A stretch of 64,000 nucleotides of DNA, from contig NZ_JAEULO010000052.1 of the NCBI RefSeq assembly GCF_016793705.1, positions 90,411-154,410 of the forward strand, in the 5' to 3' direction. The position numbers and the translations under genes were made by a program. This DNA comes from Tabrizicola sp. (GTDB lineage Bacteria > Pseudomonadota > Alphaproteobacteria > Rhodobacterales > Rhodobacteraceae). Position 1 is the stretch's first letter. Every line of letters begins with the position of its first letter. Of the stretch, positions 16,800 to 58,811 are shown in pieces. Under the pieces are notes generated by a model, which had not been told where the DNA came from, did not search any database, and saw only the letters and a program-made list of their open reading frames with translations.

Positions 16800-16871
16800 T
16801 TTCGAATTCCTTAACGTTCGCAATCAAGATATTGATTTTGCGTAGAAATCAAGAAATGTCCACCGTGGACA
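16800..16871 (-). repeat. Composite stop-codon-adjacent element, copy A (downstream of efp)
   Basis: Read on the reverse strand it runs: palindrome TGTCCACGGTGGACA (16871-16857), 18 nt, AAATCAATATCTT, 10 nt, GTTAAGG. The palindrome starts 1 nt after the efp stop codon and the element points the same way as efp. Sister copies are at 18568-18640, 34937-35011 and 58738-58811. This copy has the most degenerate final box (TTAA-N7-GAAA). Confidence 0.85.
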
Positions 16872-16872
16872 G

Positions 16873-17439
16873 TCAGTCCTTCGCGCGCTCGACATAGCTG
16901 TCATCATCAGTGTTGATCACGATCCGCGTGCCCGGCCCGATATGGGGGGGCACCATGACCCGCAGCCCATTCGAGGTCATCGCCGGCTTGTAGGACGACG
17001 AGGCCGTCTGCCCCTTCACCACCGGCTCGGTCTCGGTGATCTCGACGGTGATCTTCTGCGGGACTTCGAGGGCGATCGGAACCCCGTCGAAGGTCTTCAC
17101 GTAGCAGCGCATCCCTTCCTGGAGGTAGGGCTTGTTCGCCCCCATGATGTCCTCGGTGACGACGACCTGTTCGTAGGTGGTCGGCTCCATGAAGTGGAAC
17201 CCCTCGCCGTCTTCATAGAGGTAGTCATACTCCCGCTCGTCGACGGTGGCCTTCTCGACCATCTCGGTCGTCCGCCACCGCTCGGAGACCTTCACCCCGT
17301 CCGAAATCCGCCGCATGTCGACCGAGGTCGTGGGCGTGCCCTTGCCGGGGTGGAAGTTCGAGGCGGTGAGCACGACGTAGAGTTTGCCGTCCATCTCGAC
17401 GACGTTGCCCTTGCGCAAGCTGGAGGCGATGACTTTCAA
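16873..17439 (-). CDS. efp: Elongation factor P
   Basis: This 188-residue protein has the three-barrel EF-P pattern: [20 protein letters not shown], the loop HPGKGTP with Lys33 as the expected modified residue, and a C-terminal [21 protein letters not shown] rescues ribosomes stalled on polyproline. The start is TTG (17439-17437), with AAGGA about 8 nt before it. The gene is divergent from epmA, whose product adds beta-lysine to this lysine. A composite repeat follows the stop codon. Confidence 0.96.
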
Positions 17440-17524
17440 AGGTCTGGTCCTTGTGAATGGGGGCCTGGTCCCCTAGACCGGCCTTTGCCCGCGCGCCCTA
17501 ACCCATCCCAACCGGAAATTCCAG

Positions 17525-18565
17525 ATGAATCCCGCATCCCCTTGGTGGACGCCCCGCGTTCACGGCGACCGTCGTCCGCTGCTTTTGACCCGCAACCGCA
17601 TCCAGGCGGCGATCCGGGGCTGGCTGGCGGGGGAGGGCTTCACCGAGGTCGATCCCGCCGCGCTGGCGATCAGCCCGGGGAACGAGGCACATCTGCACGG
17701 GTTCCGGACCGAGGTGATCGGGAATGACGGGGTGGGGCGGACCATGTATTTCCACACTTCGCCTGAGTTCGCGATGAAGAAGCTCTTGGCGGCGGGGGAG
17801 CGGCGAATCCATGCCTTCTCCCACGTCTGGCGGAACCGGGAGCGGGGGGTGCTGCATTCGCCGGAGTTCACGATGCTGGAATGGTATCGGGTGGGTGAGG
17901 GATATGAGACCTTGATGGTCGATACGGTCGCCTTCCTTCGCCTCGCGGCGCGGGAGGCGGGGGCCGCGATCCTGCGGTTCCGGGACCGGGCCTGCGATCC
18001 GTTTCTGGAGCCGGAGCGGGTTTCGGTGGCCGAGGCCTTCGCGGCCCATGCCGGGGTGGACCTGTTGGCCTCGATCCGGGGGGACGGGACGACGGATGCG
18101 GGGCGGCTCGGGGCCGAACTGGACCGGATCGGGGTCAGGCGTGCTTCGGATGATACTTGGTCGGACATGCTGAGCCGGGTGTTGTCGGAAAAGGTGGAGC
18201 CGAAACTGGGGCTGGGGCGGGTGACGATCCTGGACCGCTATCCGGCGGCGGAGGCGGCGCTGGCGAGGCGCGTGCCGGGGGATGCGCGGGTGGCGGAGCG
18301 GTTCGAGGTCTATGGCTGCGGGGTGGAACTGGCGAACGGGTTCGGGGAACTGACCGACGCGGGCGAGCAGCGGCGACGGTTCGAGGCGGAGATGGCCGAG
18401 AAGGCCCGGGTCTACGGGGAGAGCTATCCGCTGGACGAGGATTTCCTGGCTGCGCTGTCGATCATGCCCCCGGCGGCGGGGATCGCGATGGGGTTCGACC
18501 GGGTGGTGATGCTGGCCACGGGCGCCCCCCGGATCGAGGAGGTGATGTGGACGCCGGTGCCGTGA
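17525..18565 (+). CDS. epmA: Elongation factor P--(R)-beta-lysine ligase
   Basis: This 346-residue protein is a truncated class II lysyl-tRNA synthetase lacking the anticodon-binding domain. It starts at MNPASPWWTPRVHGDRRPLLLTRN. Motif 2 is visible in FSHVWRNRERGVLHSPEFTMLEWY and motif 3 in PPAAGIAMGFDRVVML near the end. It aminoacylates Lys33 of EF-P. efp lies head-to-head 85 nt away. The partner EpmB (lysine 2,3-aminomutase) is not in the window. A copy of the composite repeat begins 2 nt after the stop. Confidence 0.94.
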   Translation: MNPASPWWTPRVHGDRRPLLLTRNRIQAAIRGWLAGEGFTEVDPAALAISPGNEAHLHGFRTEVIGNDGVGRTMYFHTSPEFAMKKLLAAGERRIHAFSHVWRNRERGVLHSPEFTMLEWYRVGEGYETLMVDTVAFLRLAAREAGAAILRFRDRACDPFLEPERVSVAEAFAAHAGVDLLASIRGDGTTDAGRLGAELDRIGVRRASDDTWSDMLSRVLSEKVEPKLGLGRVTILDRYPAAEAALARRVPGDARVAERFEVYGCGVELANGFGELTDAGEQRRRFEAEMAEKARVYGESYPLDEDFLAALSIMPPAAGIAMGFDRVVMLATGAPRIEEVMWTPVP

Positions 18566-18567
18566 TC

Positions 18568-18640
18568 TGTCCACGGTGGACAGAAATGGAGACTTTTGAA
18601 ATCAATGGCTTGGCTGCGGACGTTAGGGGTTTCTTAGGGT
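18568..18640 (+). repeat. Composite stop-codon-adjacent element, copy B (downstream of epmA)
   Basis: TGTCCACGGTGGACA at 18568-18582, 16 nt, AAATCAATGGCTT, 10 nt, then GTTAGGGGTTTCTTAGGG. It starts 2 nt after the epmA stop and points the same way. The final boxes read TTAG-N7-TTAG. The rest of the 375-nt gap to argC holds a GC-rich run of Cs and Gs near 18652-18690 and two copies of another repeat; I see no gene in it. Confidence 0.85.
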
Positions 18641-18747
18641 TCTAGCGTCGTCCCCCCACCCCCGGCCCCTCTCCACGGAGGGGGAGGGGAGGCGCCTGGC
18701 GCATCTTGCGGTTTTGTCGGGATGCGATGTGCCTGGCTTTGCCCTCG

Positions 18748-18785
18748 GAGCCTCCGGCGGGGATATTTGCGCCAGTATGAAAGGC
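18748..18785 (+). repeat. GCCTCCGGCGGGGATATTT repeat, copy 1
   Basis: The unit is GCCTCCGGCGGGGATATTT, then a variable 4-6 nt, then CCAGTATGAAAGGCT. It is nearly identical to the unit at 18808-18845 and similar to that at 35731-35766. From memory, such units are scattered through intergenic DNA of Rhodobacteraceae. No coding potential is evident. Confidence 0.75.
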
Positions 18786-18807
18786 TGTGAGGGGGGCGGG
18801 TGCGGGC

Positions 18808-18845
18808 GCCTCCGGCGGGGATATTTAGGGCAAAGATGAAAGGCT
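18808..18845 (+). repeat. GCCTCCGGCGGGGATATTT repeat, copy 2
   Basis: Second tandem copy, 22 nt after the first: GCCTCCGGCGGGGATATTT followed by AGGGCAAAGATGAAAGGCT. It lies upstream of argC, so it is either in the argC leader or upstream of its promoter. Confidence 0.75.
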
Positions 18846-18940
18846 GACGCCGGAATTGTGCCGGTTACGCCCAGTGGTCTTGCATTGGGGGCGTGAGGGG
18901 CGCAAAGAGGGCGCGTTTCGTTTGCAGGGAAACCCATGCC

Positions 18941-19969
18941 ATGACCCATCGCATCGCCATCCTCGGGGCCTCGGGCTATACGGGCGCCGAGCTGGTCCGC
19001 CTGATCGCGACGCATCCGTCGATGCAGATCGTAGCGCTGTCGGCGGACCGCAAGGCGGGGATGGCGATGGCGGAGGTGTTTCCGTTCCTGCGGCATCTGG
19101 ACCTGCCGAAGCTTCAGAAGATCGACGAGATCGATTTTTCCAATGTGGACCTGTGCTTCTGCGCGCTGCCGCATGCGACGACGCAGGAGGTGGTGGCGAA
19201 GCTGCCGAAGAACCTGCGGATCGTCGACCTGTCCGCCGACTTCCGGCTGCGCGATCCGACGGAATACGAGAAATGGTATGGCCAGCCGCATACGGCGGTG
19301 GAGATCCAGAAGGAGGCGGTCTACGGGCTGACCGAGTTCTACCGCGAAGAGATCAAATCCGCGCGGCTGGTGGCGGGGACCGGGTGCAATGCGGCGACGG
19401 GGCAGTTCGCGCTGCGGCCCTTGATCGCGGCGGGCTGCATCGACCTCGACGATATCCTGATCGACCTGAAGGCCGGGGTTTCGGGGGCCGGGCGGTCCTT
19501 GAAGGAGAACCTGCTTCACGCGGAATTGTCCGGGGGGACGCATACCTATTCGGCGGGCGGCAAGCACCGGCATCTGGGCGAGTTCGACCAGGAGTTCTCC
19601 AAGATCGCCGGGCGTCCCATCCGGGTGCAGTTCACGCCGCATCTTCTGCCGATGAACCGGGGCATCCTGGCCACGGTCTATGTGAAGGGGGATGCGAAGG
19701 CCGTGCATCAGGTGCTTGAAAAGGCTTATGAAAGCGAGCCCTTCCTGCAGGTGCTGCCCTTCGGCGCGCTGCCCTCGACCCGCGACATCGCGGGGTCGAA
19801 CTTCTGCCATCTGGGGGTGATCGGCGACCGGGTGCCGGGGCGTGCGGTGGTGGTGGCCGTGCTGGACAACCTGACCAAGGGGTCCAGCGGACAGGCGATC
19901 CAGAACGCGAACCTGATGCTGGGGCTGCCGGAGTCGGAAGGGCTGATGCTGGCGCCGGTTTTCCCGTGA
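18941..19969 (+). CDS. argC: N-acetyl-gamma-glutamyl-phosphate reductase
   Basis: This 342-residue enzyme carries out the third step of arginine synthesis, reducing N-acetylglutamyl-phosphate with NADPH. The dinucleotide-binding loop GASGYTGAE is at residues 9-17 and the catalytic cysteine is Cys149 in [27 protein letters not shown] lies in the second half, as in long-type ArgC. ATG 18941 (MTHRIAIL) is the family start, with an AGGGAAA site upstream; earlier in-frame starts add unconserved residues. A hairpin at 19975-19992 follows the stop. argS lies 1.8 kb downstream. Confidence 0.95.
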
Positions 19970-20076
19970 GGGGCGCCGGGCTGAAGCCCGGCCTACGGGT
20001 CTTGTCCCTTGATTCTGGTCAAGGCGCGCCCACCTTGGACGTGGCATAGGCCGGGCGTCGGCAAGGGATGCAAGCG

Positions 20077-20559
20077 ATGAGTGGCAAGCAGGAGTTCCGG
20101 GGTCTGAAGGGCCTGAAGAAGCAACGGCGCATCCAGGTGATTGCGCTGGCTGCGGTGGCGCTTCTGGGGGCGACGGGGCTTGTCGGCTATGCGATGCGCG
20201 ACGGGATCAACTATTTCCGCAGCCCGAGCCAGGTTATGACCGAGCCGCCACGCGAAGGCGAGACTTTCCGGATCGGCGGGCTGGTCGTCGAGGGGTCTAT
20301 CAAGCGCGGCGAGGGGACGGAAGTGGCCTTCGCGGTGACGGACACCAATGCCACCGTGCCTGTGCGTTATACCGGGGTTCTGCCGGACCTCTTCGGCGAG
20401 GGGCAGGGAATGATCGCGCTTGGCAAGATGGAAGGCGATACCTTCGTTGCGACCGAAGTGCTGGCCAAGCATGACGAGACCTACATGCCGAAGGAAGTGG
20501 TCGACGCGCTGAAGGAGCAGGGCGTCTACGTCGACCCGAACGCCAAGCCCGCCAGCTGA
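20077..20559 (+). CDS. ccmE: Cytochrome c maturation protein CcmE (haem chaperone)
   Basis: This 160-residue protein has a basic cytoplasmic start (KGLKKQRR), one membrane helix at about residues 18-38, and a periplasmic OB-fold. It carries the covalent haem site HDETY (His132, Tyr136) in LAKHDETYMPKEV. CcmE receives haem from CcmABCD and passes it to CcmFH. I prefer ATG 20077 (AAGGGATG upstream) to ATG 20068. The other ccm genes are not in the window, so this is a detached ccmE, as is seen in some relatives. Confidence 0.93.
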   Translation: MSGKQEFRGLKGLKKQRRIQVIALAAVALLGATGLVGYAMRDGINYFRSPSQVMTEPPREGETFRIGGLVVEGSIKRGEGTEVAFAVTDTNATVPVRYTGVLPDLFGEGQGMIALGKMEGDTFVATEVLAKHDETYMPKEVVDALKEQGVYVDPNAKPAS

Positions 20560-20628
20560 GCGCGCGCTGCGGCAGGGCGGCGTTAAGGCTGGCCTGCGAG
20601 GCTTGCCCCCGAGTTGAAGGGGGTGCCC

Positions 20629-21240
20629 ATGCCGAATGTCCGGGAGATTGCCGAAGAGATCGTGGTCCGCGAGGGGGGCTTCGTGAACGACCCGGACGAT
20701 CCGGGGGGTGCGACGAACCACGGGGTGACGATCGGGACGCTGCGGCGGCTGGGGATCGACGTGAACCGGGATACGCGGATCGACGTGGTCGATGTGAAGG
20801 CCTTGTCGCAGAAGCAGGCGGTGGAGATCTACCTCAAGTACTATTTCGAGGTGCCGGGGATCGGGGCCTTGCCGGAGCCGGTGCAGGCCTCGGTCTTCGA
20901 TATGTATGTGAATGCAGGCGGCAATGCGGTGAAGATCCTGCAGCGACTCGTGACCGACATGGGCTTTCCCTGCGAGGCGGATGGCGAGATCGGGCCGCAG
21001 ACCATTCGCGCGGCGCAAGGAGCGTTCGAGGCGGCGCCGTCGCATCTGGTCGATGCTTACGGGATCGCGCGGCGGAACTATTATTACGCTTTGGCGGACA
21101 AGCGGCCGGCCAGCCGAAAATATGCCCGGGCGAAGGATGGCGGCAAGGGCGGCTGGATCAGGCGGGCCGAGGCCTTCATCGCGCCGAAGTATCATCTGAC
21201 GGCGGCGCAGCACGCGGCGCGGGTGGCAGCATGGGCGTGA
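20629..21240 (+). CDS. GH108 peptidoglycan hydrolase (GTA-type endolysin)
   Basis: This 203-residue protein has the glycosyl hydrolase 108 catalytic start, VVREGGFVNDPDDPGGATN, with Glu15 of EGG as the expected catalytic acid, followed by HGVTIGTLRRLGID. The C-terminal part contains DGEIGPQTIRA, as in the peptidoglycan-binding PF09374 region. There is no signal peptide, so export depends on a holin, and the next gene encodes one. The pair resembles the lysis genes of Rhodobacter capsulatus GTA (rcc00555/rcc00556), which are unlinked to the GTA structural cluster. GAAGGGGGTG precedes the ATG. Confidence 0.88.
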   Translation: MPNVREIAEEIVVREGGFVNDPDDPGGATNHGVTIGTLRRLGIDVNRDTRIDVVDVKALSQKQAVEIYLKYYFEVPGIGALPEPVQASVFDMYVNAGGNAVKILQRLVTDMGFPCEADGEIGPQTIRAAQGAFEAAPSHLVDAYGIARRNYYYALADKRPASRKYARAKDGGKGGWIRRAEAFIAPKYHLTAAQHAARVAAWA

Positions 21241-21701
21241 TCGGCAAGCTGATCGGTTCTCCGGCGGCGGTAAGCGCGCTGGGCGAGGCGGCGCAGGGGG
21301 TGGCGGAGGTCTTCCTGCCCTCGGCGACGAAGAAGATGGAACTGTCGGCCGAGGCGCAGATGGCGGCGCTGCGGCAGCTGGGGGAGGAGTATCAGCACCC
21401 CGCGCTGAGCTGGTTCGACCGGCTGGTGAACGGGCTGAACCGGTTGCCGCGACCGTTTCTGGCTTTCGGGACGCTGGGGCTGTTCACCTATGCCATGGTC
21501 GACCCGGAGGCCTTTGCCAGGCGGATGGTGGGGCTGAATGCGGTGCCGGAGCCGCTGTGGTGGCTTCTGGGCGCCATCGTGGCGTTCTATTTCGGGGCGC
21601 GGGAGACGCATTATTTCCGCTCGCGCGGGGTGGTGTCGCCCTTTGCGGCAGGTGGCGCGGCGGAGGAGAATGCGGCGCTGGAGGACTGGCGGCAGGGGTG
21701 A
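21231..21701 (+). CDS. Holin of the GTA three-helix family
   Basis: This 156-residue protein has an amphipathic N-terminal third (MGVIGKLIGSPAAVSALGEA), then hydrophobic stretches near residues 75-95 (FLAFGTLGLFTYAM) and 108-125 (LWWLLGAIVAFYFGAR), ending in a charged tail. It fits the Holin_3TMs family (PF11351). It overlaps the endolysin gene by 10 nt. A holin makes the membrane hole that lets the signal-less endolysin reach the wall. The two-gene unit with no other phage gene nearby fits a GTA release module. Confidence 0.85.
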   Translation: MGVIGKLIGSPAAVSALGEAAQGVAEVFLPSATKKMELSAEAQMAALRQLGEEYQHPALSWFDRLVNGLNRLPRPFLAFGTLGLFTYAMVDPEAFARRMVGLNAVPEPLWWLLGAIVAFYFGARETHYFRSRGVVSPFAAGGAAEENAALEDWRQG

Positions 21702-21770
21702 TCCCCCTGCCTCTTCTTGACCTCTGACCGGGCCTCTGGCATGGCCTTTGGCATCAGAGGATGTGATCAA

Positions 21771-23513
21771 ATGAACCTGTTCGCCGATATCCGTGAGCTT
21801 GTGGTGGCCGAGCTTGAGGCGCTGATGGCCTCGGGCGGGTTGCCCTCGGGGCTGGACCTTGCCGGGGTCGCGGTGGAGCCGCCGCGCGATGCGGGGCATG
21901 GCGAGATGGCGACCAATGCGGCGATGGTGCTGGCGAAGCCTGCGGGGATGCAGCCCCGCGCGATTGCCGATGCGCTGGCGGCGCGGCTGATGGCGGACCC
22001 GCGCGTGGCGGGGGCGGATGTGGCGGGGCCGGGGTTCCTGAACCTGCGGCTGCAGCCTTCGGCCTGGCAGGGGCTGGTGCGGGACGTGCTGGAGCAGGGG
22101 GAGGCATATGGCCGGTCCGCGCTGGGGCAGGGGCGCCGCGTGAACGTGGAGTTCGTGAGCGCCAACCCGACGGGGCCGATGCATGTGGCGCATGCGCGGG
22201 GGGCGGTGGTGGGGGATGCGCTGGCCTCGCTCTTGGACTTCGCGGGCTATGCGGTCACGCGGGAGTATTACATCAACGATGGCGGGGGGCAGGTCGACGT
22301 GCTGGCGCGGTCGGCCTATGAGCGCTATCGCGAGGCGAACGGGTTGTCGCCCGAGATCGCAGAGGGGCTTTATCCGGGGGATTACCTGATCCCGGTGGGC
22401 GAGGCGTTGAAGGCCATGCATGGCGACCGTTTGCTCGATATGCCGGAGAGCGAGTGGCTGGCGGAGGTGCGGGTCTTTGCCACCGACATGATGATGGCGA
22501 TGATCCGGCACGACCTCGCGGCTCTGGGCGTGGAGATGGATGTCTATTCGTCCGAAAAGGCGCTGTACGGGACGGGCCAGATCGAGGCGGCGCTGGAGCG
22601 GCTGAAGGGCCTGGGGCTAATCTATACCGGCGTGCTGGAGCCGCCGAAGGGCAAGGCGCCGGAGGATTGGGAGGCGCGGGAGCAGACGCTGTTCCGGTCG
22701 ACCGCGTTCGGGGACGACCAGGACCGGCCGGTGCAGAAGTCGGACGGCTCTTGGACCTATTTTGCGCCGGATATCGCGTACCACTGGAACAAGGTGGAGC
22801 GCGGGTTCGACGAGCTGATCAACATCTTCGGGGCGGACCATTCGGGCTATGTGAAGCGGCTGAAGGCGGTGGTGGCGGCGCTGTCGGAGAACCGGGTCAG
22901 CCTGGATATCAAGCTGATCCAGCTGGTGAAGCTGCTGAAGGGTGGGCAGATCGTCAAGATGTCGAAGCGGGCGGGGACTTTCGTCACGCTCCGCGACCTG
23001 ATCGACGAGGTGGGGCCGGATGTCGTCCGCTTCGTCATGCTGACACGGAAGAACGACGTGGCGCTGGACTTCGACTTCGACAAGGTGACGGAGCAGTCGA
23101 AGGACAACCCGGTTTTCTATGTGCAATATGCCAATGCGCGGGTGAACTCGATCCTGCGCAAGGCGCGCGAGGCGGGGCTGGATGTGAGCGATGCCTCGCT
23201 TTCCGCCGCGCATCTGGCGCATCTGGGGCACGAGGCCGAGATGGGCGTGATCCGCAAGCTGGGCGAATGGCCCCGGCTGGTGGAGATTGCCGCCAAGGGG
23301 CACGAGCCGCACCGGGTGGCCTTCTACCTGTATGAACTGGCGTCGGACTTTCACGGGCTCTGGAACCGGGGCAACGAAGACGACAGCTTGCGGTTCCTCC
23401 AGGGGGATACCGCAAAATCTCAGGCGAAAATCGCCCTTGCCCGGGCCGTGGGCGTTGTTATTTGCGCAGGCCTTGGTATCCTTGGCGTGACTCCGGTCGA
23501 GGAAATGCGCTGA
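21771..23513 (+). CDS. argS: Arginyl-tRNA synthetase
   Basis: This 580-residue class I synthetase has the HIGH-like motif in [22 protein letters not shown] (HVAH), the KMSKR-type KMSKRAG in [17 protein letters not shown], and the DALR anticodon-binding C-terminal region ([16 protein letters not shown]). The N-terminal ArgS additional domain opens at [18 protein letters not shown] 21771 is chosen because the family begins here and AGAGGATG precedes it. It attaches arginine to tRNA-Arg. Confidence 0.97.
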
Positions 23514-23587
23514 CGAAACGGCGCCCCGCCGGGCATGAGGCGTGAATGCGAGGGGCGGATCAACCACCCCGCAGGCAGGGGCAGCAG

Positions 23588-24571
23588 ATGGCGGACGCGG
23601 ATCATGATTTCGGCGGCAGCTTCTCATCCGAGAGGCAGGCACCGCGACGGGGTGCCCGGGATGCTGCGGCTGCCGACAAGCTGCAACGGAAGGTCAACCT
23701 TGCCGGTGGCCTGACCTCGTTGGCGCTGGTCGTGGGCCTTGGCGTCTGGGGCTACAAACTGGCGGTGCGCGATGTGAACGGCGTGCCGGTCATTCAGGCG
23801 CTGGACGGACCGATGCGGATTTCGCCCGCCGATCCGGGGGGCGAGGTCACCGACAACCAGGGCCTTGCGGTGAACACGGTGGCCGCGGTGGGGATTGCCG
23901 CCCCGCCGCCGGAAAAGCTGGTGCTGGCCCCGCGCCCGGTCGAGCTTGCGCCCGAGGATACGGCGGGTCTGGGCGGTGCGCCGATGCCGGGCCTGTCCGA
24001 AGCTTCGGCTCCTTCGACCGCGTTGACGGCAGATGCCGATCTGGCGCTGGCAGCGGACCCGGCGACCGAGAGCGCCAACCCGACCGAAGTCGCGGTCGAT
24101 GCGGCCCTCGCCGAGGCGCTGGGGGAAGTCCCCGGTGATGTGGCGATGGTCGATGATGTGACATTGGCCGAGGAAATGGCCGAGGCTGCACCCGAGGGGG
24201 CGATCACCGTCTCGCCCCGTCCGAAGGCCCGGCCCGGCGCGCGCGAGGCTGTTGCGGCGGCTCCGGCGGAAGCGGTGGCGATGGCCGCAGTGAGCGAGGT
24301 GGACCCGGCGACGATTGCCCCCGGCACAAGGCTGGTGCAGTTCGGCACCTTCGACACCGCCGAGGAAGCGCGGGCGGAATGGATGCGCCTGCAAGGCCGG
24401 TTCGGCGAGCTGATGGCGGAAAAGGCGATGGTGGTGCAGCCGGCGGAAAGCGGCGGGCGCACCTTCTATCGCCTGCGCGCGCATGGCTTCGAGGGCGAGG
24501 ATGACGCGCGGCGCTTCTGCTCGGCCTTCGTCAGCGAGAATGCGGTCTGCATTCCGGTGCCGCAGAAATGA
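23588..24571 (+). CDS. SPOR-domain membrane protein
   Basis: This 327-residue protein has a cytoplasmic N-terminus of about 37 residues and one membrane helix near 38-58 (AGGLTSLALVVGLGVWGYKL). A long Ala/Pro/Glu-rich periplasmic linker follows, then a C-terminal SPOR domain of about 75 residues (GTRLVQFGTFDTAEEARAEW). SPOR domains bind denuded glycan strands at the division septum. The gene stop overlaps the nagZ start (ATGA), joining a septal peptidoglycan protein to a peptidoglycan-recycling enzyme. Confidence 0.9.
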   Translation: MADADHDFGGSFSSERQAPRRGARDAAAADKLQRKVNLAGGLTSLALVVGLGVWGYKLAVRDVNGVPVIQALDGPMRISPADPGGEVTDNQGLAVNTVAAVGIAAPPPEKLVLAPRPVELAPEDTAGLGGAPMPGLSEASAPSTALTADADLALAADPATESANPTEVAVDAALAEALGEVPGDVAMVDDVTLAEEMAEAAPEGAITVSPRPKARPGAREAVAAAPAEAVAMAAVSEVDPATIAPGTRLVQFGTFDTAEEARAEWMRLQGRFGELMAEKAMVVQPAESGGRTFYRLRAHGFEGEDDARRFCSAFVSENAVCIPVPQK

Positions 24572-26982: not shown

Positions 26983-26992
26983 GGAGGCGGGG

Positions 26993-34936: not shown

Positions 34937-35011
34937 TGTCCACGGTGGACATTTTCAGATACTCAAGAAGATTCAATATCTTATGAGTTTTCGTTAGGGT
35001 GGTGTTAAGGG
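34937..35011 (+). repeat. Composite stop-codon-adjacent element, copy C (downstream of the OlsB-like gene)
   Basis: TGTCCACGGTGGACA at 34937-34951, 18 nt, GATTCAATATCTT, 10 nt, then GTTAGGGTGGTGTTAAGG. It starts 1 nt after the stop codon and points with the gene. The final boxes read TTAG-N7-TTAA, close to the CtrA consensus TTAA-N7-TTAA. It fills most of the convergent gap to the DUF4157 gene. Confidence 0.85.
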
Positions 35012-35024: not shown

Positions 35025-35564
35025 TTATCCCCCGCCATATACAGCCTTGATCTCCGCTCCGATGGCATAGGCTTCGGCTTCCACCGCCTGATGGTCGGTG
35101 ACGTAGCGCCGGGCGAAGTCCATCAGGCCCCAGCGGCGAAACTGTTCGACATGCTTCACCTCGTGGCCCCAGAGGGCGATGTTGGTCTGGGCGTCCCCGG
35201 CGTCGTGGAAGATGATCGTGTCGATGGCGGTGACGGCAGTGGCGTCGCTGTAGCGCATCGAGAGGGACTGGATGGTGGCGTCCTCGGCTACGCCGACGCG
35301 GTATTCGATGCTGTCGAGGAGGTCGGCGGGATACCAGGCGAGAAGGGCTTCGCGAATCCGCGGGGGCATGGGTTCCGTGCCCTGCGCCCAGGCGGCGTCG
35401 CGGGAGGCGACCAGCGCGTTGGCAAGCGCGGTGGCGGCGATCTCGATCCCGGTCTCGAATGCGGCGTTTGGGTCGAGAAGGCCCTGGGCCTGCGGGGCCG
35501 TCGCGGGGAGGGCCGCGAGGCAGAGGAGAGCGGCAAGCTTCAGGGGGGCACGTCTGCGGCGCAT
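35025..35564 (-). CDS. Secreted DUF4157-like putative metallopeptidase
   Basis: This 179-residue protein has a signal peptide (basic MRRRRAPLK, then LAALLCLAALPATAPQAQ, cleavage near residue 27). HEVKH at 134-138 in LWGHEVKHVEQFRRWG is an HExxH zinc-metallopeptidase motif in a DUF4157-like setting. A possible third ligand is Glu in DHQAVEAEAYA further on. It is predicted to be periplasmic; the substrate is unknown. An alternative start farther upstream would lack the signal peptide, so 35564 is preferred. Confidence 0.75.
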   Translation of the reverse strand: MRRRRAPLKLAALLCLAALPATAPQAQGLLDPNAAFETGIEIAATALANALVASRDAAWAQGTEPMPPRIREALLAWYPADLLDSIEYRVGVAEDATIQSLSMRYSDATAVTAIDTIIFHDAGDAQTNIALWGHEVKHVEQFRRWGLMDFARRYVTDHQAVEAEAYAIGAEIKAVYGGG

Positions 35565-51351: not shown

Positions 51352-51500
51352 AAAATCATCCACACTTTTTCGACCCGCCGACAGGATGGCGCAGGCCCAT
51401 TGCCGCGCACGCTAGACGAGTGCGCCGGGCAGGTCAAACCGTGCACGGTTTTGAATGCGATCACGGGGCCGTGAAAATGGCTGATTTCCAAGGCATAGTT

Positions 51501-51531
51501 GCCCGCGTGCCGCAGATTCCGGCACGCGGGC
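51501..51531 (-). terminator. Hairpin behind kynA, possible terminator
   Basis: GCCCGCGTGCCG and its exact complement (12-bp stem, 7-nt loop) begin 8 nt after the kynA stop on the reverse strand. No T-run follows, so it may protect or process the 3' end rather than terminate alone. Confidence 0.5.
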
Positions 51532-51538
51532 GGCCTTG

Positions 51539-52378
51539 TCAAAGCTCGGTGCGGACTGCCCAAAGCTCGGGGAAGAGCTCAACATCCAGCATCCGGCGCA
51601 GGTAGGAGATGCCGGAGGTGCCGCCGGTGCCGCGCTTGATGCCGATGACGCGGGCCACGGTGGTCAGGTGGTTGAAGCGCCAGCGGCGGAAGTAATCCTC
51701 GAAATCCACCAGCTTCTCGGCCAGTTCATAGGCCTGCCAATGCGCGCCCGGGTCGCGGTAGATGACCTCCCACATCGCCTGGACGCCGTCATGCTGGGTC
51801 CAGGCCTGGCGCAGGTCGCGGGTCAGCACGTCCCTGGGCACAGGCAGGCCGGCACGGGCGAGGTGGCGCAGCGCCTCGTCATAAAGCGTCGGGCGGGCAA
51901 GTTCGGCCTCCAGCTTCGCCATCAGGTCGGGGCGGTGGGCGTGCGGCTTCAGCATGGCGAGGTTGCGGTTGCCGACGGCATATTCGATCAGCCGGTACTG
52001 CCAGGACTGGAAGCCCGAGGACTGGCCAAGCGCTTCGCGGAAGGTGGTGTAGTCCGAGGGCGTCATGGTGCGAAGGACGTCCCAGGCGTTGTTCAACTGC
52101 TCGAAGATGCGGGCGACGCGGGCGAGCATCTTGAACGCCTCCTGCGCGCGGTCGGCGGCGATCATCCGGCGCGCGGCGTCGATCTCGTGGAGGGCGAGGC
52201 GCATCCAAAGCTCGGAGGTCTGGTGCTGGATGATGAACAGCATCTCGTCATGCGCATCGCTGAGGGGGGTCTGCGCGGCGAGGATGCGGTCGATGTGCAG
52301 GTAGTCACCATAGGACATGCGGCCGTCAAAGGCCATCTGGGCACCGTCTTCGGCAGGGTTGTAGGGGGTGGCGGTCAT
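51539..52378 (-). CDS. kynA: Tryptophan 2,3-dioxygenase
   Basis: This 279-residue haem enzyme opens the indole ring of tryptophan to N-formylkynurenine. Marks are [39 protein letters not shown] with the substrate-side His, [19 protein letters not shown], and [15 protein letters not shown] near the C-terminus. ATG 52378 follows GGAGAAAAAC. It is the last gene of kynU-GH5-kynA, with a 124-nt gap before it, and kynB is not in the window. Confidence 0.96.
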
Positions 52379-52502
52379 GTTTTTCTCCATCTTGAAAAGG
52401 GGTTTCAGGACAGGAGAACGGCCCTTCGGTTCAGGATCGAAAGGTTGCCCATCCGCCGCCAGAGGGCGACCCAGCCGGCGGGGCGGCAGAGCGGCGGGAG
52501 CC

Positions 52503-53726
52503 TCAGTTGCCGCATGGCAGGCCCAGGGCGCGGCAGGTATCCGGCGACAGGCGACGGTCGGGATCGTCGGGCATCGCGACGCCCATGCCGCCATTCCAGC
52601 TGAGAATGGCCCAGCCAAAACCCGCGTCCTCGGCCGCCTTGCGCTTGGCGCTGATGAAGGCGTGATACCATTCCATCGGCTGTGGCACCTCGTCGGGCGT
52701 GTGCAGCGCGCCGAATTCCCCAAGCAGCACACGGTCGCGCGGAATGCCATGGGCGTCCGCCCAGGCGGCGGCGCGGGTGATCTCTTCGTTGACGGCGCTT
52801 TCCGGCGTGTCTGCATATTCCTGCACGATCCGGGCGATCACCTCGGCGTCCGCCGTCCCTTCCGCCGCCTCCATGCGTGCGACGGCGGATTTTGTGACCT
52901 CTGCGACGATTTCCGGCGTAATCAGCGAGGGCGGAAAGGGGACACGGGTAATATACTTGAGCGGCGGGTCGATCCAGACGGCCCCCTGGTGAGTGAAAGT
53001 GAAGGGCGCGTAGCTGTGGAAGGTCCAAAGGACATTGTCGTCCTGAATCAGCGACGGATCGAGCGAGGCCAGGGACGCGGCCTGGCCCCAGCAGGCGCCG
53101 GTCAGGATCAGGGTCAGGTCGGGTGCCCCCCTGCGGGCGGCGGCGTGCAGCCGGGCCTGCATGTCCGGCCATTTCGGCGGGGCTCCCGCGTAGACGCCGT
53201 CGCAGTCGAAGACGGGTTCGTTCAGAAGTTCCAGCGCCACACGGTCGGCAGGAAGATCGGACAGCCGCGAGGCGATATGTCCGACAAGGGCGACGTAGTC
53301 GGGAAACTGATCGCCGACGATGCTCTCGGCGCCGCCGATCTCATCACCGCGCGGAATGGGATGAAGATCGACGATCACCTTCAATCCGGCATCGAGCGCC
53401 AGGTTGGTGGCGGCGCCCATCCCGTCGATCATGCGGTCCTGGTCGGGACCGGGTCCGTAGACCAGCGCGGGTCCGGGGTCGAGCGGCAGGCGGATGAAGT
53501 CAAAACCTTCGTCGGACAGCGCCTCGAACATCGCCGGGGTGACGTGACGAAGCCAGTCGGGAAAGACGGCCAGCGCCTCCGGGTCCGCCATCAGTTCGGC
53601 GATCGTCCCCCAGTTGGTCCATTGCTCGGCGTTGACCCCGCGTTGCAGGCGAAGCGTATCTGCCGGGGCGACCGAACCGGCGACCACGAGCAGTGCGGCG
53701 AGGGCAAGGACGCGATGGTGGACCAT
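52503..53726 (-). CDS. GH5-like (cellulase family) glycoside hydrolase, secreted
   Basis: This 407-residue protein has a signal peptide ([22 protein letters not shown]). The GH5 pattern follows: [21 protein letters not shown], acid/base Glu170 in ELLNEPVFD, His237/Tyr239 in WTFHSYAPF, nucleophile Glu337 in LLGEFGA, and WAILSWNGG. It would cut beta-glucans outside the cytoplasm. It sits inside the kynurenine operon, 17 nt after kynU, which has no obvious metabolic reason. It may instead act on an endogenous glycan. Confidence 0.85.
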
Positions 53727-53743
53727 GCGGGCTTTCCTTCGGT

Positions 53744-54940
53744 TCAGGTGACGCGGGCGCGGGCCTTGAACTCGGGCTTGTCCCAGCTGCCGTAGTCCAT
53801 GATCTTCGCCAGAACGGAAACCGCGCGGGCGACGTCGTCTTCGTCGATGTAAAGCGGCGTGAAGCCGAAGCGCAAGATGTCGGGCGCGCGGAAGTCGCCG
53901 ATCACGCCCTCTGCGATCAGGGCCTGCATGATGGCATAGCCTTCGGGGTGACGGAAACTGACCTGGCTGCCGCGCATCAGGTGCGACCGGGGCGTGGCCA
54001 GGTGCAGCATGGGTGCGCGAGTCTCGATCCCCTTGATGAACTGGTCTTGCAGGCGCAGCGACTGGGCGTGGACCTCGCGCAGGTCGACACCCTCCCAGAC
54101 ATCGAGCGCGGCGTCCAGCGCGGCCATTTGCAGGATGGGGGGCGTGCCGACGCGCATCCGCTCGATTCCGGCGCCGGGGCGGTAGGAGAGGTCGAAGGCG
54201 AAAGGCGCTTCATGGCCGAGCCAGCCGGAAAGGGCGGGGCGCGCCGTGTCGGCGTGGCGGGGGGCGACATAGATGAAGGCCGGGCCGCCGGGGCCGGAGT
54301 TGAGATACTTGTAGGTGCAGCCCACCGCGAAATCGGCCTTTGCGCCGGTCAGGTCAACCGGGAGGGCGCCGGCGCTGTGGGCCAGGTCCCAGACGGTGAG
54401 CGCCCCCATCTCATGTGCGCGCCGGGTGATGTCGGCCATGTCGTGACGGCGGCCGGTGCGGTAGTCGACCTCGGTGATCATGGTGACGGCGACGCTGTCG
54501 TCGATGGCGGACATCACCTCTTCCGGCGCGACGGTCTTCAGCCGGTATTGCCCGCCAAGGGTGCGGCACAGGCCCTCGGCCATGTAGAGGTCGGAGGGGA
54601 AATTGCCGGTGTCGGAGAGGATGACCTTGCGCTTGGGGTTCATCTCGAGCGCCGAGGCGAGCGCCTGGTAGACCTTGATCGAGAGCGTGTCTCCCAACAC
54701 GACGCTGCCCGCCGGTGCGCCGATCAGCCTGCCGATCCGGTCGCCCAGCACGGCGGGCTGCGCCATCCAGCCGGCCTTGTTCCAGCCGCGGATCAGCATC
54801 TCGGCCCATTCGTCGCGCATGACTTTCTCCATCCGCGCGGGGGCGGATTTCACCATCGGGCCCAGCGAGTTGCCGTCGAGATAGATCACGCCTTCGGGCA
54901 GGTGGAAGTGAGCTTTGGTGGCGGCAAAGTCGATGGGCAT
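53744..54940 (-). CDS. kynU: Kynureninase
   Basis: This 398-residue PLP enzyme cuts kynurenine to anthranilate and alanine. It starts MPIDFAATKAHFHLPEGVIYLDGNSLG. The PLP Lys211 is in GCTYKYLNSGPGGP, with the preceding AHSAGALPVDL region carrying Asp contacts. ATG 54940 fits the family start; the open frame upstream is not conserved. Promoter DNA with an 18-bp palindrome lies about 50 nt upstream. Confidence 0.96.
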   Translation of the reverse strand: MPIDFAATKAHFHLPEGVIYLDGNSLGPMVKSAPARMEKVMRDEWAEMLIRGWNKAGWMAQPAVLGDRIGRLIGAPAGSVVLGDTLSIKVYQALASALEMNPKRKVILSDTGNFPSDLYMAEGLCRTLGGQYRLKTVAPEEVMSAIDDSVAVTMITEVDYRTGRRHDMADITRRAHEMGALTVWDLAHSAGALPVDLTGAKADFAVGCTYKYLNSGPGGPAFIYVAPRHADTARPALSGWLGHEAPFAFDLSYRPGAGIERMRVGTPPILQMAALDAALDVWEGVDLREVHAQSLRLQDQFIKGIETRAPMLHLATPRSHLMRGSQVSFRHPEGYAIMQALIAEGVIGDFRAPDILRFGFTPLYIDEDDVARAVSVLAKIMDYGSWDKPEFKARARVT

Positions 54941-54986
54941 GAGCGCGTCCTTCGGGGTTTGCCGAGTTATGCGGCGGTGGGCAAAA

Positions 54987-55004
54987 AATTTCAAGCTTGA
55001 AATT
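54987..55004 (-). promoter_or_regulatory. Perfect 18-bp palindrome upstream of kynU, probable operator
   Basis: AATTTCAAGCTTGAAATT is a complete palindrome, 46 nt from the kynU ATG. Kynurenine operons in proteobacteria are often controlled by an Lrp/AsnC-type regulator (KynR). No such gene lies nearby, so the binding protein is unknown. Confidence 0.55.
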
Positions 55005-55123
55005 GTTGCGGGCCAGCCGTGTCGCTTCCGGTTGAAAGAGTGCCGCAGGGGAACATTTGTCCGGCTTCCTGGCTTGCAGCCGGAGGACCGAGCGTCTAGA
55101 GGAGCCGAAATGGAGGTCCCCGG

Positions 55124-55585
55124 TTGCGTTCCTTCCTGCATGAGATTGACATCCCGCCAAGCTGGCTGGTGCTGCACGTCGGCGCGGCTTGGGTCCTGTC
55201 GCTGGTGTCCCCGCCGATGTTTGGTAGCCTGGCGCGCGCGCTGGGGTCGGTTCTGGTTGTTGTCGGTGCGCTTGTGATGGGCGCGGCTGTCGCGCAGATG
55301 ACCCAGGCGCGGACCACCGTCATCCCGCGCCGTGATCCGCAGGCCCTGGTGACGTCCGGGGTATTCGCCCTGTCGCGGAATCCGATCTATCTCGCCGATG
55401 CCGTGATCCTGACCGGGGCGATCCTCTGGCTGGATGCCGTGCTTGCGTTGCCTTTGGTCTTCAGCTTCGTCTGGCTGATCCAGACCCGCTTCATCCGCGA
55501 CGAGGAAATCCGCCTGACCGAGGCTTTCGGGCCGGAGTTCGATCTCTGGGCCGCGCGCACGCGCCGTTGGCTGGGGCGGAAATGA
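55124..55585 (+). CDS. Isoprenylcysteine carboxyl methyltransferase-like membrane protein
   Basis: This 153-residue protein has three or four hydrophobic helices (about 15-32, 38-58, 90-125). The family signature is LVTSGVFALSRNPIYLADAVIL near residue 75-97, ending FIRDEEIRLTEAFGPEFDLWAARTRRWLG. It belongs to the ICMT/PEMT-like membrane methyltransferases; the substrate is unknown. The start is a TTG with a strong GGAGGT upstream; no in-frame ATG is available. It is divergent from kynU. Confidence 0.85.
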   Translation: MRSFLHEIDIPPSWLVLHVGAAWVLSLVSPPMFGSLARALGSVLVVVGALVMGAAVAQMTQARTTVIPRRDPQALVTSGVFALSRNPIYLADAVILTGAILWLDAVLALPLVFSFVWLIQTRFIRDEEIRLTEAFGPEFDLWAARTRRWLGRK

Positions 55586-55685
55586 CGCGGCGGCGGGCGG
55601 AAAAAGTAGAGTTTGAAATAATGTTGCGCAATGCTATGTGCGTCGGGTCGGTTTATGACCGCGCAGGCAAGATCGGGGGACCAGG

Positions 55686-57260
55686 GTGAAGATAGGCGCT
55701 TTGACGGAAGTGTTTCCCGGCGAGAACCGGGTGGCGATGACGCCGGATTCGGCCATGCAGCTGGCGAAGCTGGGACATTCCTCCTGCATCCAGTCGGGGG
55801 CGGGGGCGAAGGCGGGCTTCTCGGACGCGGCCTATGCGGCGGCGGGCGTCGAGGTGCTGCCGGATGCGGCGGCGGTGATCGCGGCGGCGGATGTGATCGT
55901 CAAGGTGCGGGGGCCGGATGCGGCAGAGCTGTCGCGGCTTCAGGACGGGCAGACGCTGATCAGCTTCTTCTGGCCCGCGCAGAACGCCGAGCTTCTGGAA
56001 GCGGCGGCAAAGAAGAACCTGACCATCGTCGCCATGGACATGGTGCCGCGGATCAGCCGCGCGCAGAAGATGGATGCGCTGTCGTCGATGGCGAACATCG
56101 CGGGCTACCGTGCGGTGATCGAGGCCGGGTCGAACTTTGGCCGCTTCTTCACGGGGCAGGTCACGGCGGCGGGCAAGGTGCCGCCGGCGAAGGTGCTGGT
56201 GGTGGGGGCAGGCGTTGCCGGTCTTGCGGCGGTCGGCACGGCGACGTCGCTGGGGGCGATCGTTCACGCCTTCGACGTGCGACCGGAAGTGGCGGAGCAG
56301 ATCGAATCGATGGGGGCGAATTTCGTCTTCCTCGACTTCGCCGAACAGCAGACGGACGGGGCGGCGACGGGGGGCTATGCGGCCCCGTCGAGCCCGGAGT
56401 TCCGCGAGGCGCAACTGAAGAAGTTCCGCGAGCTGGCGCCGGAGATGGATATCGTCATCACCACGGCGCTGATCCCGGGGCGTCCCGCGCCGAAGCTCTG
56501 GACCGAGGACATGGTCGGGATGATGAAGCCCGGCAGCGTCATCGTCGACCTTGCGGCGGAGCGTGGCGGCAACTGCGACCTGACGGTGCCGGACCAGAAG
56601 ATCGTTACCGACAATGGCGTGACCATCGTGGGCTACACCGATTTCCCCAGCCGGATGGCGACGCAGGCCTCGACGCTTTATGCGACCAATATCCGCCACA
56701 TGCTGACCGACCTGACGCCGAAGAAGGATGGCGTCATCGCGCACAACATGGAGGATGACGTGATCCGGGGGGCGACGGCAGCGCATATGGGGGCGGTGAC
56801 CTATCCGCCGCCGCCGCCGAAGGTCGCCGCCATCGCGGTGCAGAAGCCTAAGGAGAAGGCGCGCGAGCTGACGCCGGAAGAGCGCCGGGCGAACGAGGTC
56901 GCGGCGTTCAAGGCGCAGACGCGGAGCCAGGTGGGCCTGCTGGCCATTGGCGGCGGGCTGATGCTGCTGGCGGGGCTTTACGCTCCGGCCAGTTTCATGA
57001 GCCACTTCATCGTCTTCGTGCTGGCGGTCTTCGTTGGCTTCCAGGTGATCTGGAACGTCTCGCATTCCCTGCACACGCCCTTGATGGCGGTGACGAACGC
57101 AATCTCGTCGATCATCATCCTGGGCGCGCTGATGCAGATCGGGTCGGGGTCGTTCCTCGTGATCCTCCTCGCGGCGCTGTCGGTCTTCATGGCCGGGATC
57201 AACATCTTCGGCGGCTTCATGGTGACGCGCCGGATGCTTGCCATGTTCCAGAAGTCGTAA
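55686..57260 (+). CDS. pntA: NAD(P) transhydrogenase alpha subunit
   Basis: This 524-residue protein starts at GTG. The NAD-binding dI domain runs to about residue 380 ([68 protein letters not shown]). Four membrane helices follow after residue 420 ([19 protein letters not shown] and on). It is the fused form with soluble and membrane parts on one chain. With PntB it drives NADPH formation from NADH using the proton gradient. Confidence 0.96.
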
Positions 57261-57270
57261 GGGGGCCGTC

Positions 57271-58704
57271 ATGGAATTCGGATTTACCACGGCGGCTTAC
57301 GTCGTTGCAGCGGTCCTGTTCATCCTCTCGCTCGGGGGGCTTTCGGGCCAGGAAAGCGCCAAGCGCGCGGTCTGGTATGGGATCGTCGGCATGGCGCTGG
57401 CGGTTGCCGCCACGCTCTACGGGCCGGGCTTCGGGCTGTGGTGGCTGTCGGTCCTGCTGATCGCTGGCGGCGGTGCGATTGGCTGGATCGTCGCGCAGCG
57501 GGTGCAGATGACCGAGATGCCGCAGCTGGTGGCGGCGATGCACAGCCTTGTCGGCCTTGCGGCTGTGTTCATCGGCTTCAACACCCATATCGAGTTGGTC
57601 CGGGTGACCGGGATGGATGAAGCCGCCCGCGCCGCGCTGGACGGGTTTGCGGCGGTTGTCGCCCACAAGACCGGCGTCGAAGTGTCGATCCTGCGGGTCG
57701 AGACCTTCCTCGGTATCTTCATCGGGGCGGTCACCTTCACCGGATCGGTGATCGCCTTCGGCAAGCTGGCGGGTAAAGTCGACGGCAAGGCGAAGAAGCT
57801 GCCTGGCGGGCATCTCTTGAACGCATCGGCGGCGATCATTTCGATCGTCTTGCTGGCGGTCTACCTGCAGTCGGGCTCGACGCTGGCGCTTCTGGGCATG
57901 ACGGCGGCCGCGCTTTTCATCGGCTATCACCTGATCATGGGGATCGGCGGGGCGGACATGCCGGTCGTCGTGTCGATGCTGAACAGCTATTCCGGCTGGG
58001 CGGCGGCGGCGATCGGGTTTTCGCTGTCCAACGACCTCCTGATCGTGGTCGGCGCACTGGTCGGTTCCTCGGGGGCGATCCTGTCCTACATCATGTGCAA
58101 GGCGATGAACCGGAGCTTCATCTCCGTGATCCTGGGCGGCTTCGGTGGCACCACGGGCCCGGCGATGGAAGTCACTGGCGAGCAGATCGCGATTGATGCC
58201 GAGGGTGTGGCGGCAGCGCTGAACGATGCGGATTCGATCATCATCATCCCGGGCTACGGCATGGCGGTGGCGCAGGCGCAGCAGTCGGTCAGTGAGCTGA
58301 CCCGGAAGCTGCGGGCCAAGGGCAAGACCGTCCGCTTCGCGATCCACCCGGTGGCGGGGCGGCTGCCGGGGCACATGAACGTGCTCCTGGCCGAGGCGAA
58401 GGTGCCCTATGACATCGTGCTGGAGATGGACGAGATCAACGAGGACTTCCCGGAGACCGACGTCGCCATCGTGATCGGGTCGAACGACATCGTGAACCCG
58501 GCGGCGCAGGAGGACCCGAATTCGCCCATCGCGGGGATGCCGGTCTTGGAATGCTGGAAGGCGAAGCAGGTCTTCGTCTCGAAACGGGGGCAGGGGACCG
58601 GGTATTCGGGGATCGAGAACCCGCTCTTCTACAAGGAGAACACCCGGATGTTCTATGGGGACGCGAAGAAGTCCCTCGACAGTCTTCTGCCGATGATCGA
58701 GTGA
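57271..58704 (+). CDS. pntB: NAD(P) transhydrogenase beta subunit
   Basis: This 477-residue protein has eight or nine membrane helices and a C-terminal NADP-binding dIII domain ([73 protein letters not shown]). It begins [21 protein letters not shown]. It follows pntA by 10 nt with an AAGGGGG site. A strong hairpin and then a composite repeat follow the stop. Confidence 0.96.
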
Positions 58705-58710
58705 AAGCCG

Positions 58711-58737
58711 GGCGGGGCGGGCATTGTCCGCCCCGCC
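58711..58737 (+). terminator. Hairpin behind pntB
   Basis: GGCGGGGCGG / CCGCCCCGCC (10-bp stem, 7-nt loop), 6 nt after the stop. The next base begins the palindrome of a composite repeat, whose GATTTTCGG supplies a short T-run. Confidence 0.65.
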
Positions 58738-58811
58738 TGTCCACGGTGGACAGATTTTCGGACCGTGGAAAATCAATGGCTTATCTGCGGGCTTTAGGGG
58801 TTGGTTAAGCC
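58738..58811 (+). repeat. Composite stop-codon-adjacent element, copy D (downstream of pntB)
   Basis: TGTCCACGGTGGACA at 58738-58752, 17 nt, AAATCAATGGCTT, 10 nt, then TTTAGGGGTTGGTTAAG. This copy lies 33 nt after the pntB stop because a GC-rich hairpin sits in between. It points with pntB. Final boxes TTAG-N7-TTAA. The remaining DNA to the DUF3422 gene (to 58980) shows no gene. Confidence 0.85.

What the first reader, a model, noticed from the sequence alone, without database searches (positions are those of the whole stretch)
16800..58811. A roughly 73-nt composite element follows four genes in the same orientation, three of them 1-2 nt after the stop codon
Four copies (16871-16800 reverse, 18568-18640, 34937-35011, 58738-58811) share one layout. 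The palindrome TGTCCACGGTGGACA comes first, then 16-18 nt, then the core AAATCAATATCTT or AAATCAATGGCTT, exactly 10 nt, then GTTAGGGG..TTAAGG. Total lengths are 72-75 nt. Copies A, B and C start 1, 2 and 1 nt after a stop codon. Copy D follows pntB after a hairpin. All point in the direction of the gene before them. A mobile repeat would not be expected to choose stop codons this exactly, while a plain terminator would not need the conserved spacing and the final boxes. It could be a 3' UTR regulatory module, a MITE-like repeat that spares genes, or a protein-binding site carried at gene ends.
Basis: partly seen in the sequence, partly recalled or inferred. Interest (0 to 1): 0.8.

Follow-up and report, generated by a model that had tools for sequence, protein, structure and literature searches.

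The report
IHF-palindrome gene-end element with dialects
The bacterium and its relatives carry up to about a hundred copies of a small three-part DNA element, mostly just behind stop codons; many positions are shared between species, but the palindrome changes across the genome from species to species, which suggests an unknown DNA-organising system with a fast-evolving recognition protein.

Summary
The host genome (genus Tabrizicola) has 75 exact palindromes; 74 sit beside a match to a model built without the palindrome, which finds 125 sites.

Anatomy: palindrome, 18-21 nt AT-rich spacer, a core fitting the IHF consensus WATCAANNNNTTR, two TTARGG-like boxes 11 bp apart.

Of 288 elements with both neighbours called, 227 follow a same-strand stop codon, median 3 nt; convergent gaps are favoured, divergent ones avoided. 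Many positions are orthologous between species (543 present, 47 absent), and no RAYT passes its cut-off. The palindrome differs between genomes: orthologous copies are no more alike than unrelated copies of the same two genomes. It evolves largely in concert while position is inherited.

Palindrome quality does not depend on orientation to the gene, favouring a DNA-level role. Best reading: a nucleoprotein site at gene ends (palindrome-binding protein, IHF bend, box-binding factor), working like E. coli RIB/BIME-1 but failing the REP and RAYT tests. Protein binding and function are inferred; the palindrome-binding protein is unknown.

The parts
16857..16871 (-). Copy A palindrome TGTCCACGGTGGACA, 1 nt after the efp stop codon
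16825..16837 (-). Copy A IHF-like core AATCAATATCTTG
   Evidence: consensus WATCAANNNNTTR occurs in IHF papers (listing)
16798..16815 (-). Copy A tail: GTTAAGG then GAAAGG, box starts 11 bp apart
16765..16794 (-). Intrinsic terminator behind copy A (not part of the element)
   Evidence: similar hairpins follow the efp copy in relatives, by eye
18568..18582 (+). Copy B palindrome, 2 nt after the epmA stop codon
18600..18612 (+). Copy B IHF-like core AATCAATGGCTTG
18622..18640 (+). Copy B tail: TTAGGG at 18623 and TTAGGG at 18634
34937..34951 (+). Copy C palindrome, 1 nt after the stop codon of a GNAT/OlsB-like gene
34971..34983 (+). Copy C IHF-like core ATTCAATATCTTA
34993..35011 (+). Copy C tail: TTAGGG at 34994 and TTAAGG at 35005
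58738..58752 (+). Copy D palindrome, 33 nt after the pntB stop codon, behind another GC-rich inverted repeat
58771..58783 (+). Copy D IHF-like core AATCAATGGCTTA
58793..58811 (+). Copy D tail: TTAGGG at 58794 and TTAAGC at 58805

Best explanation
A vertically inherited, three-part DNA-binding site at gene ends. Inferred mechanism: a dimeric protein, different in specificity from species to species, binds the palindrome; IHF binds the core about 20 bp further on and bends the DNA; a conserved third factor binds the two direct TTARGG-like boxes one helical turn apart. Together they form a fixed nucleoprotein complex about 75-80 bp long just behind the coding region, where it would mark or insulate the gene end (transcription limit, supercoil or domain boundary), in the manner proposed for E. 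coli RIB/BIME-1 elements (recalled). Shown: anatomy, rigid spacing, gene-end placement, shared positions, genome-wide palindrome dialects, upkeep independent of orientation. Inferred: protein binding, bending and function.
For: Fixed spacing: in the 73 G000 copies of R1's alignment the palindrome-to-core gap is 20 nt in 52, 19 in 19, 18 in 1 and 21 in 1, and core to tail is gapless. The core fits WATCAANNNNTTR: at its nine fixed positions 64, 42, 53, 71, 72, 51, 70, 72 and 71 of 73 rows agree, 65 of 73 rows agree at seven or more; the spacer before it is 61% A+T against 33% in the loci. R1 matches in 31 of 32 genus genomes, the host included. Placement: stop|element|stop 121, stop|element|start 106, start|element|stop 48, start|element|start 13 of 288; gaps of at least 90 nt in the window and in 45 loci are 14 convergent, 40 tandem, 33 divergent of 87. 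Palindrome set by genome, not locus: orthologous arms differ at 4.06 of 14, non-orthologous arms of the same genome pairs at 4.24 (605 and 2575 pairs). Arm pairing kept through change: 315-354 of 361 Watson-Crick per pair (arms were placed where pairing was best, so these are upper values). Arms TGTCCAC/GTGGACA in 59 of 81 sense and 21 of 31 other copies of G000, p 0.64. The upstream genes that I named are varied housekeeping and metabolic genes, so no regulon is apparent. Spacing more even than random in G000 (CV 0.58 against 0.90; 0 of 4000, P 0.00025 or less).
Against: No protein is shown to bind, and I have no candidate for the palindrome-binding protein. Even spacing is weaker elsewhere (R1 sites: G015 P 0.015, G022 P 0.13). 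There is a sense-orientation bias, and single mismatches lean to G-U over A-C (33:17) as an RNA stem would give, though less so among unique sense cases (21:14, p 0.31). Loops in G006 are not self-complementary. Concert is incomplete: 123 of 500 elements in pairs of different dialect are not nearer their own genome's dialect.
Confidence: 0.5

Rival explanations
1. A 3' UTR RNA module: the palindrome is a hairpin in the mRNA just after the stop codon that protects or ends the transcript or is bound by a sequence-specific RNA-binding protein.
For: 227 of 288 copies are sense behind a stop, 136 of these 227 at 0-4 nt; compensatory arm changes; non-palindromic loops in G006; G-U over A-C 33:17; at efp the element lies between stop codon and intrinsic terminator.
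Against: 61 of 288 copies are not behind a same-strand gene, and such copies keep equally good palindromes (perfect arms 52 of 80 against 186 of 294); core and tail fit DNA motifs (IHF, 11-bp direct boxes) and show no consistent helix; complementarity reaches the centre in most dialects; the G-U excess is not significant among unique sense cases.
Confidence: 0.2
2. The element is the gene's transcription terminator or attenuator: hairpin plus an IHF roadblock.
For: Placement at gene ends, favouring convergent genes; 12 of 58 sense palindromes pass a loose intrinsic-terminator test themselves; BIMEs are linked to transcription attenuation (title in a reference list).
Against: 46 of 58 sense palindromes fail that test; a separate terminator follows at efp. 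A terminator-like hairpin follows the tail in 13 of 58 sense copies, three of these inside an inserted IS, against 6.2 in shuffles and 4 on the other strand, so how these genes end is undecided. A terminator would not need the fixed core and tail.
Confidence: 0.12
3. A REP- or MITE-like mobile repeat, now fixed.
For: 125 dispersed copies in G000; CGTC palindromic repeats, which predominate in Alphaproteobacteria among Proteobacteria, also lack a dedicated transposase (PMC3733652, passages); the epmA copy is absent in 11 of 28 species seen, which loss or gain could explain.
Against: Y1_Tnp (RAYT domain) over cut-off in 0 of 32 genomes, two weak matches below it; no GTAG or CGTC tag; 543 of 590 flank-anchored comparisons show the element and no absence shows a target duplication; no near-duplicates in G000; different palindromes at the same locus.
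Confidence: 0.1
4. A self-DNA label, like uptake sequences of naturally competent bacteria, whose palindrome dialect follows a receptor.
For: Genome-wide dialects at shared places, even spacing in G000, gene-end placement.
Against: At most 128 R1 matches per genus genome at E 0.01, few for an uptake sequence (recalled); long and multipart with an IHF-like core; competence not tested.
Confidence: 0.08

Closest known systems
E. coli RIB/RIP elements (BIME-1)
   Same: Composite repeats with palindromes and an IHF-binding stretch, at the 3' ends of transcription units (BIME-1 as described in PMC2817692, passages; Boccard and Prentki 1993 seen as a title only).
   Different: Here one palindrome, not two inverted REPs; a tail of direct boxes 11 bp apart; species-wide palindrome dialects; no REP tag or RAYT found.
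REP sequences with GTAG tag and RAYT transposase
   Same: Short palindromes between genes in many copies, different in different species (PMC3733652, passages).
   Different: No GTAG tag, no RAYT domain over cut-off in 32 genomes, shared positions between species.
CGTC-tagged palindromic repeats
   Same: Palindromes that predominate in Alphaproteobacteria and lack a dedicated transposase (PMC3733652, passages).
   Different: No CGTC tag here; an IHF core or tail is not mentioned in the passages seen.
Neisseria Correia/NEMIS elements
   Same: Intergenic repeat whose internal part binds IHF in vitro (PMC2229807, passages).
   Different: Those are MITEs with empty sites known; none found here.

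Membership tests
RIB/RIP (BIME-1) | IHF site between two palindromic units | tested here: inconclusive
   IHF-like core by sequence at fixed distance from one palindrome; no second inverted palindrome seen in the consensus
RIB/RIP (BIME-1) | Lies at 3' ends of transcription units | tested here: met
   275 of 288 elements face at least one gene 3' end; transcription units themselves not mapped
RIB/RIP (BIME-1) | Specific IHF binding in vitro | not testable with these tools
   needs gel shift or ChIP
RIB/RIP (BIME-1) | Built from REP units | tested here: not met
   no GTAG tag, no RAYT domain over cut-off
REP/RAYT | GTAG at one end of the palindrome | tested here: not met
   before the palindrome only G or C at -1 is conserved (74 of 75), no tetranucleotide
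REP/RAYT | RAYT (Y1_Tnp) transposase in the genome | tested here: not met
   0 of 32 over cut-off; 2 weak matches below it
CGTC repeats | CGTC tag at one end | tested here: not met
MITE | Empty sites with target duplication | tested here: not met
   543 present, 47 absent of 590 flank-anchored comparisons; no target duplication seen; 4 short intervals at epmA cannot tell loss from absence
Intrinsic terminator | GC-rich hairpin followed by a T run | tested here: not met
   12 of 58 sense palindromes pass a loose test, 46 do not
Uptake sequence (USS/DUS) | Preferential uptake of DNA carrying it | not testable with these tools
   needs uptake assay

The most novel reading that the evidence does not exclude
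The elements are anchors of an undescribed chromosome-wide system: a rapidly evolving, genome-specific protein reads the palindrome at about a hundred inherited gene-end sites, which switch dialect together, with IHF and a conserved box-binding factor completing each complex to set domain or gene-end boundaries (or to label self DNA).
Probability: 0.3. Interest if true: 0.85.

Novelty: new variant of a known kind. Interest (0 to 1): 0.72.

Why it matters
As I recall, RIB/BIME-1 elements have been known since 1993 with no settled role. This family offers a comparative handle: up to about 128 sites per genome with a rigid layout, many at orthologous places, natural genomes with few or none (G026 with 2, G013 with 4, G027 with 8 R1 matches), and natural replacement of one module only, the palindrome. 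That makes the role of IHF-palindrome sites at gene ends testable, and points to an unknown protein whose specificity must have changed together with many sites.

Tried and rejected
RAYT/REP origin: Y1_Tnp search, 0 of 32 over cut-off. Structured RNA in Rfam: only a tRNA in the window at gathering scores. RNA helix in the tail: a column-pair test on 73 copies gave no consistent helix. Intrinsic terminator: weak. Spread by phages: tail pattern 0 matches in viral contigs; this exact pattern matches only 6 of R1's 73 rows, so it is insensitive. Sites outside the genus: 13 of 246 family genomes other than G000 and G001 at E 1e-3 under strict filters; nine of the 13 show a palindrome in place (G053, G065, G071, G156, G179, G223, G263, G331, G334), G059, G075, G280 and G319 do not. 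In a class sample, which includes some genomes of the family, 0 of 189 others at E 1e-4. Pfam on an IS piece in L130: no family at 1e-5, so 'IS30-like' is recalled resemblance only. Literature: no paper in the listings named this element; searches bore on it (46 gave one parS paper, 84 one unrelated paper, 86 none); others were on related matters. Papers: passages only of PMC3733652, PMC2817692, PMC2229807 and PMC12306157, otherwise listings.

Limits. Gene calls are from my own codon model, compared with Pfam/NCBIfam for window genes; a first version called the wrong strand at epmA. R1 searches scored at most 150 candidates per genome, 22-29 in the large ones. Of the 51 own R1 sites without an exact palindrome, 40 were fetched. 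The 378 elements are de-duplicated by sequence, contain orthologues and are not independent. One search kept elements with PWM score of at least 30, at most one arm mismatch and genes called on both sides (288); its background of 87 gaps includes the window's own element-bearing gaps. Unnamed loci L188-L220 were each treated as a separate genome. IHF column counts were biased because I had anchored on the consensus; the figures given come. Of the 47 absences, 28 are element-length intervals at efp in G027, G013 and G003 (decayed in G027 and G003, nothing recognisable in G013), 1 is L033, 9 come from one query (L176) with negative gaps and doubtful anchors, 5 are at epmA (4 of them gaps of 1-18 nt), and 4 are 66-67-nt intervals in L108 and L191. 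A looser flank test gave 893 present, 37 weak, 292 absent of 1222. The even-spacing test in G000 used 72 of 117 sites (contigs over 75 kb with three or more; 76 of 125 gave the same result); exact palindromes from capped lists gave P 0.011 (G015) and 0.024 (G022), R1 sites P 0.015 and 0.13.
Full report
What is in the window. The four copies are as described. Each has a 15-nt palindrome, about 20 nt of AT-rich spacer, a core that fits the IHF consensus WATCAANNNNTTR (the string occurs with IHF in papers listed; I saw the listing only), and a tail with two TTARGG-like boxes whose starts are 11 bp apart. They follow efp, epmA, a GNAT/OlsB-like gene and pntB. The gaps to the stop codon are 1, 2, 1 and 33 nt.

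Genome-wide. The host genome, a 3.84-Mb assembly in 73 contigs, holds 75 exact palindromes against 0 for the reversed pattern. A sequence-only model R1, built from 73 copies without the palindrome, finds 125 sites at E up to 1, 117 at 0.01. 74 of the 75 exact palindromes lie beside an R1 site; L037 is the exception. L030 is an element on the other strand whose palindrome has the opposite centre base. In R1's 73 copies the gap from palindrome to core is 20 nt in 52, 19 in 19, 18 in 1 and 21 in 1. The spacer is 61% A+T against 33% in the loci, and 65 of 73 cores agree with at least seven of the nine fixed IHF positions.

Who has it. The 80 named ones are Tabrizicola, Rhodobacter or MAGs titled Rhodobacteraceae, Rhodobacterales, Alphaproteobacteria or Pseudomonadota. 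Equal contig lengths identify G015 as T. aquatica, G020 as T. thermarum, G001 as R. calidifons and G024 as T. flagellatus; the host of the window is in the same genus and is itself unnamed. In the genus 31 of 32 genomes, host included, have R1 matches at 0.01; G026 has 2, G013 4, G027 8 and G002 (80% complete) none. In a family sample 15 of 248 genomes match at 1e-3 under strict filters, two of them G000 and G001; nine of the other 13 show a palindrome in place. In the class sample only the host matches at 1e-4, 1 of 190.

Dialects. Many congeners have no exact TGTCCACGGTGGACA yet have dozens of R1 sites. There another palindrome takes its place: TGTCCACAGTGGACA, TGTCCACGCGTGGACA, TGCCCACGCGTGGGCA, GCGCCGCGCGCGGCGC, TGTCCCTTGCAGGGACA; in other genera GCGTCCGAGCTCGGACGC, GCGTCCCACCGTGGGACGC, TGTCCACATGTGGACA or GGTCCCAACTCGGGACC. 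The efp-epmA locus was fetched from 30 of the 32 genus genomes. The end of efp is visible in 29: 22 have a clear element close behind the stop codon, with differing palindromes, 3 a weak one (G005, G027, G028), and 4 none by the score (G001, G003, G013, G026; G003 looks decayed). The end of epmA is visible in 28: 17 have the element, 11 do not. Over 605 orthologous pairs the palindrome arms differ at 4.06 of 14 positions; random non-orthologous pairs of the same genomes differ at 4.24. For core plus tail the figures are 13.28 and 15.67 of 44, for the spacer 9.53 and 10.2 of 20. The spacer has thus largely lost locus-specific likeness too, so the case for concert rests on the palindrome being uniform within genomes: in G000, 70 of 110 palindromes are identical, mean arm distance 2.65 of 14 against a mean tail distance of 19.1 of 44. 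The concert is incomplete: of 500 elements in 250 pairs whose genomes differ in dialect, 377 are nearer their own genome's dialect and 123 are not; G011, T. thermarum and one MAG are mixed.

Placement. Of 75 exact copies 58 follow a same-strand stop (median 3 nt) and 17 do not. Over all genomes 227 of 288 do, 136 of these at 0-4 nt. Convergent gaps are enriched (121 of 288, against 14 of 87 gaps of at least 90 nt) and divergent gaps depleted (13 of 288, against 33 of 87). Of the 75 left-hand neighbour genes of exact copies I searched 32 in the family libraries; those with a name are varied housekeeping and metabolic genes such as glmM, leuA, recQ, hemH and gap. Spacing along the chromosome is more even than random in G000 (CV 0.58 against 0.90, 0 of 4000 simulations; 10% of gaps under 10 kb against 29%). 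It is weaker in G015 (P 0.015) and not significant in G022 (P 0.13).

Mobile or inherited. Flank-anchored comparison gave 543 present and 47 absent. Of the absences 28 are element-length intervals at efp in three species, and none shows a clean empty site with a target duplication. There are no near-duplicates inside G000 (best 78%, median 37.5%) and no Y1_Tnp gene over cut-off in 32 genomes. I conclude that the element is mostly inherited in place. An insertion-sequence end (IS30-like by recalled resemblance) abuts the TTAAC of the tail in all four exact copies of that end in G000, and ten elements in all carry the junction: the tail is a target of a mobile element rather than one itself.

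DNA or RNA. For RNA: sense bias, compensatory changes, non-palindromic loops in G006, G-U over A-C mismatches 33:17. For DNA: copies not behind a same-strand gene keep the palindrome as well as sense copies (dialect arms in 21 of 31 against 59 of 81 in G000; perfect arms in 52 of 80 against 186 of 294 overall). The G-U excess is 21:14 among unique sense cases (p 0.31). The tail has no consistent helix, and core and boxes look like protein sites at helical spacing. I favour DNA at about 0.5.

Comparison. The closest known things are E. coli RIB/BIME-1 elements: an IHF-binding stretch between palindromes, at 3' ends of transcription units (passages and reference titles in PMC2817692 and PMC3733652; the 1993 paper itself is not held). 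This element works like them on paper but fails the REP-unit and RAYT tests, so I do not file it as a member. I describe it as a new family of IHF-bearing extragenic palindromic elements with two features that I did not see in print: a rigid three-part layout at shared places, and palindrome dialects that shift genome-wide.

Noticed in passing
L006, L048, L073, L323 (G000); L130, L173, L343, L346, L351, L352: An IS30-like insertion-sequence end (name recalled; Pfam found no family for one piece) begins at TTAAC of the element tail. All 4 exact copies of this end in G000 do so, near contig ends.
   Followed up: partly
L011 and similar loci (for example L108, L138, L143): Tail boxes run on: three to four TTAAGG-like boxes at 11-12 bp steps, behind a histidine kinase gene in L011, at what looks like the same locus in several species.
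   Followed up: no
L052 and L065: Two loci whose upstream genes end almost identically both carry an element 2-3 nt behind the stop; the L052 gene is GAPDH-like by NCBIfam, the L065 gene was not searched.
   Followed up: no
window 16798-18640: efp and epmA are divergent neighbours and each ends in an element, so the pair is bracketed by two copies.
   Followed up: partly
window 35025-35564: The gene convergent to copy C has an eCIS core domain (PF13699).
   Followed up: no
G026, G013, G002, G027: Congeners with few or no elements (2, 4, 0 and 8 R1 matches): possible natural losses, useful for finding the partner protein; G002 is only 80% complete.
   Followed up: no
palindrome position -1, 75 exact copies of G000: 74 of 75 have G or C directly before the palindrome.
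   Followed up: no
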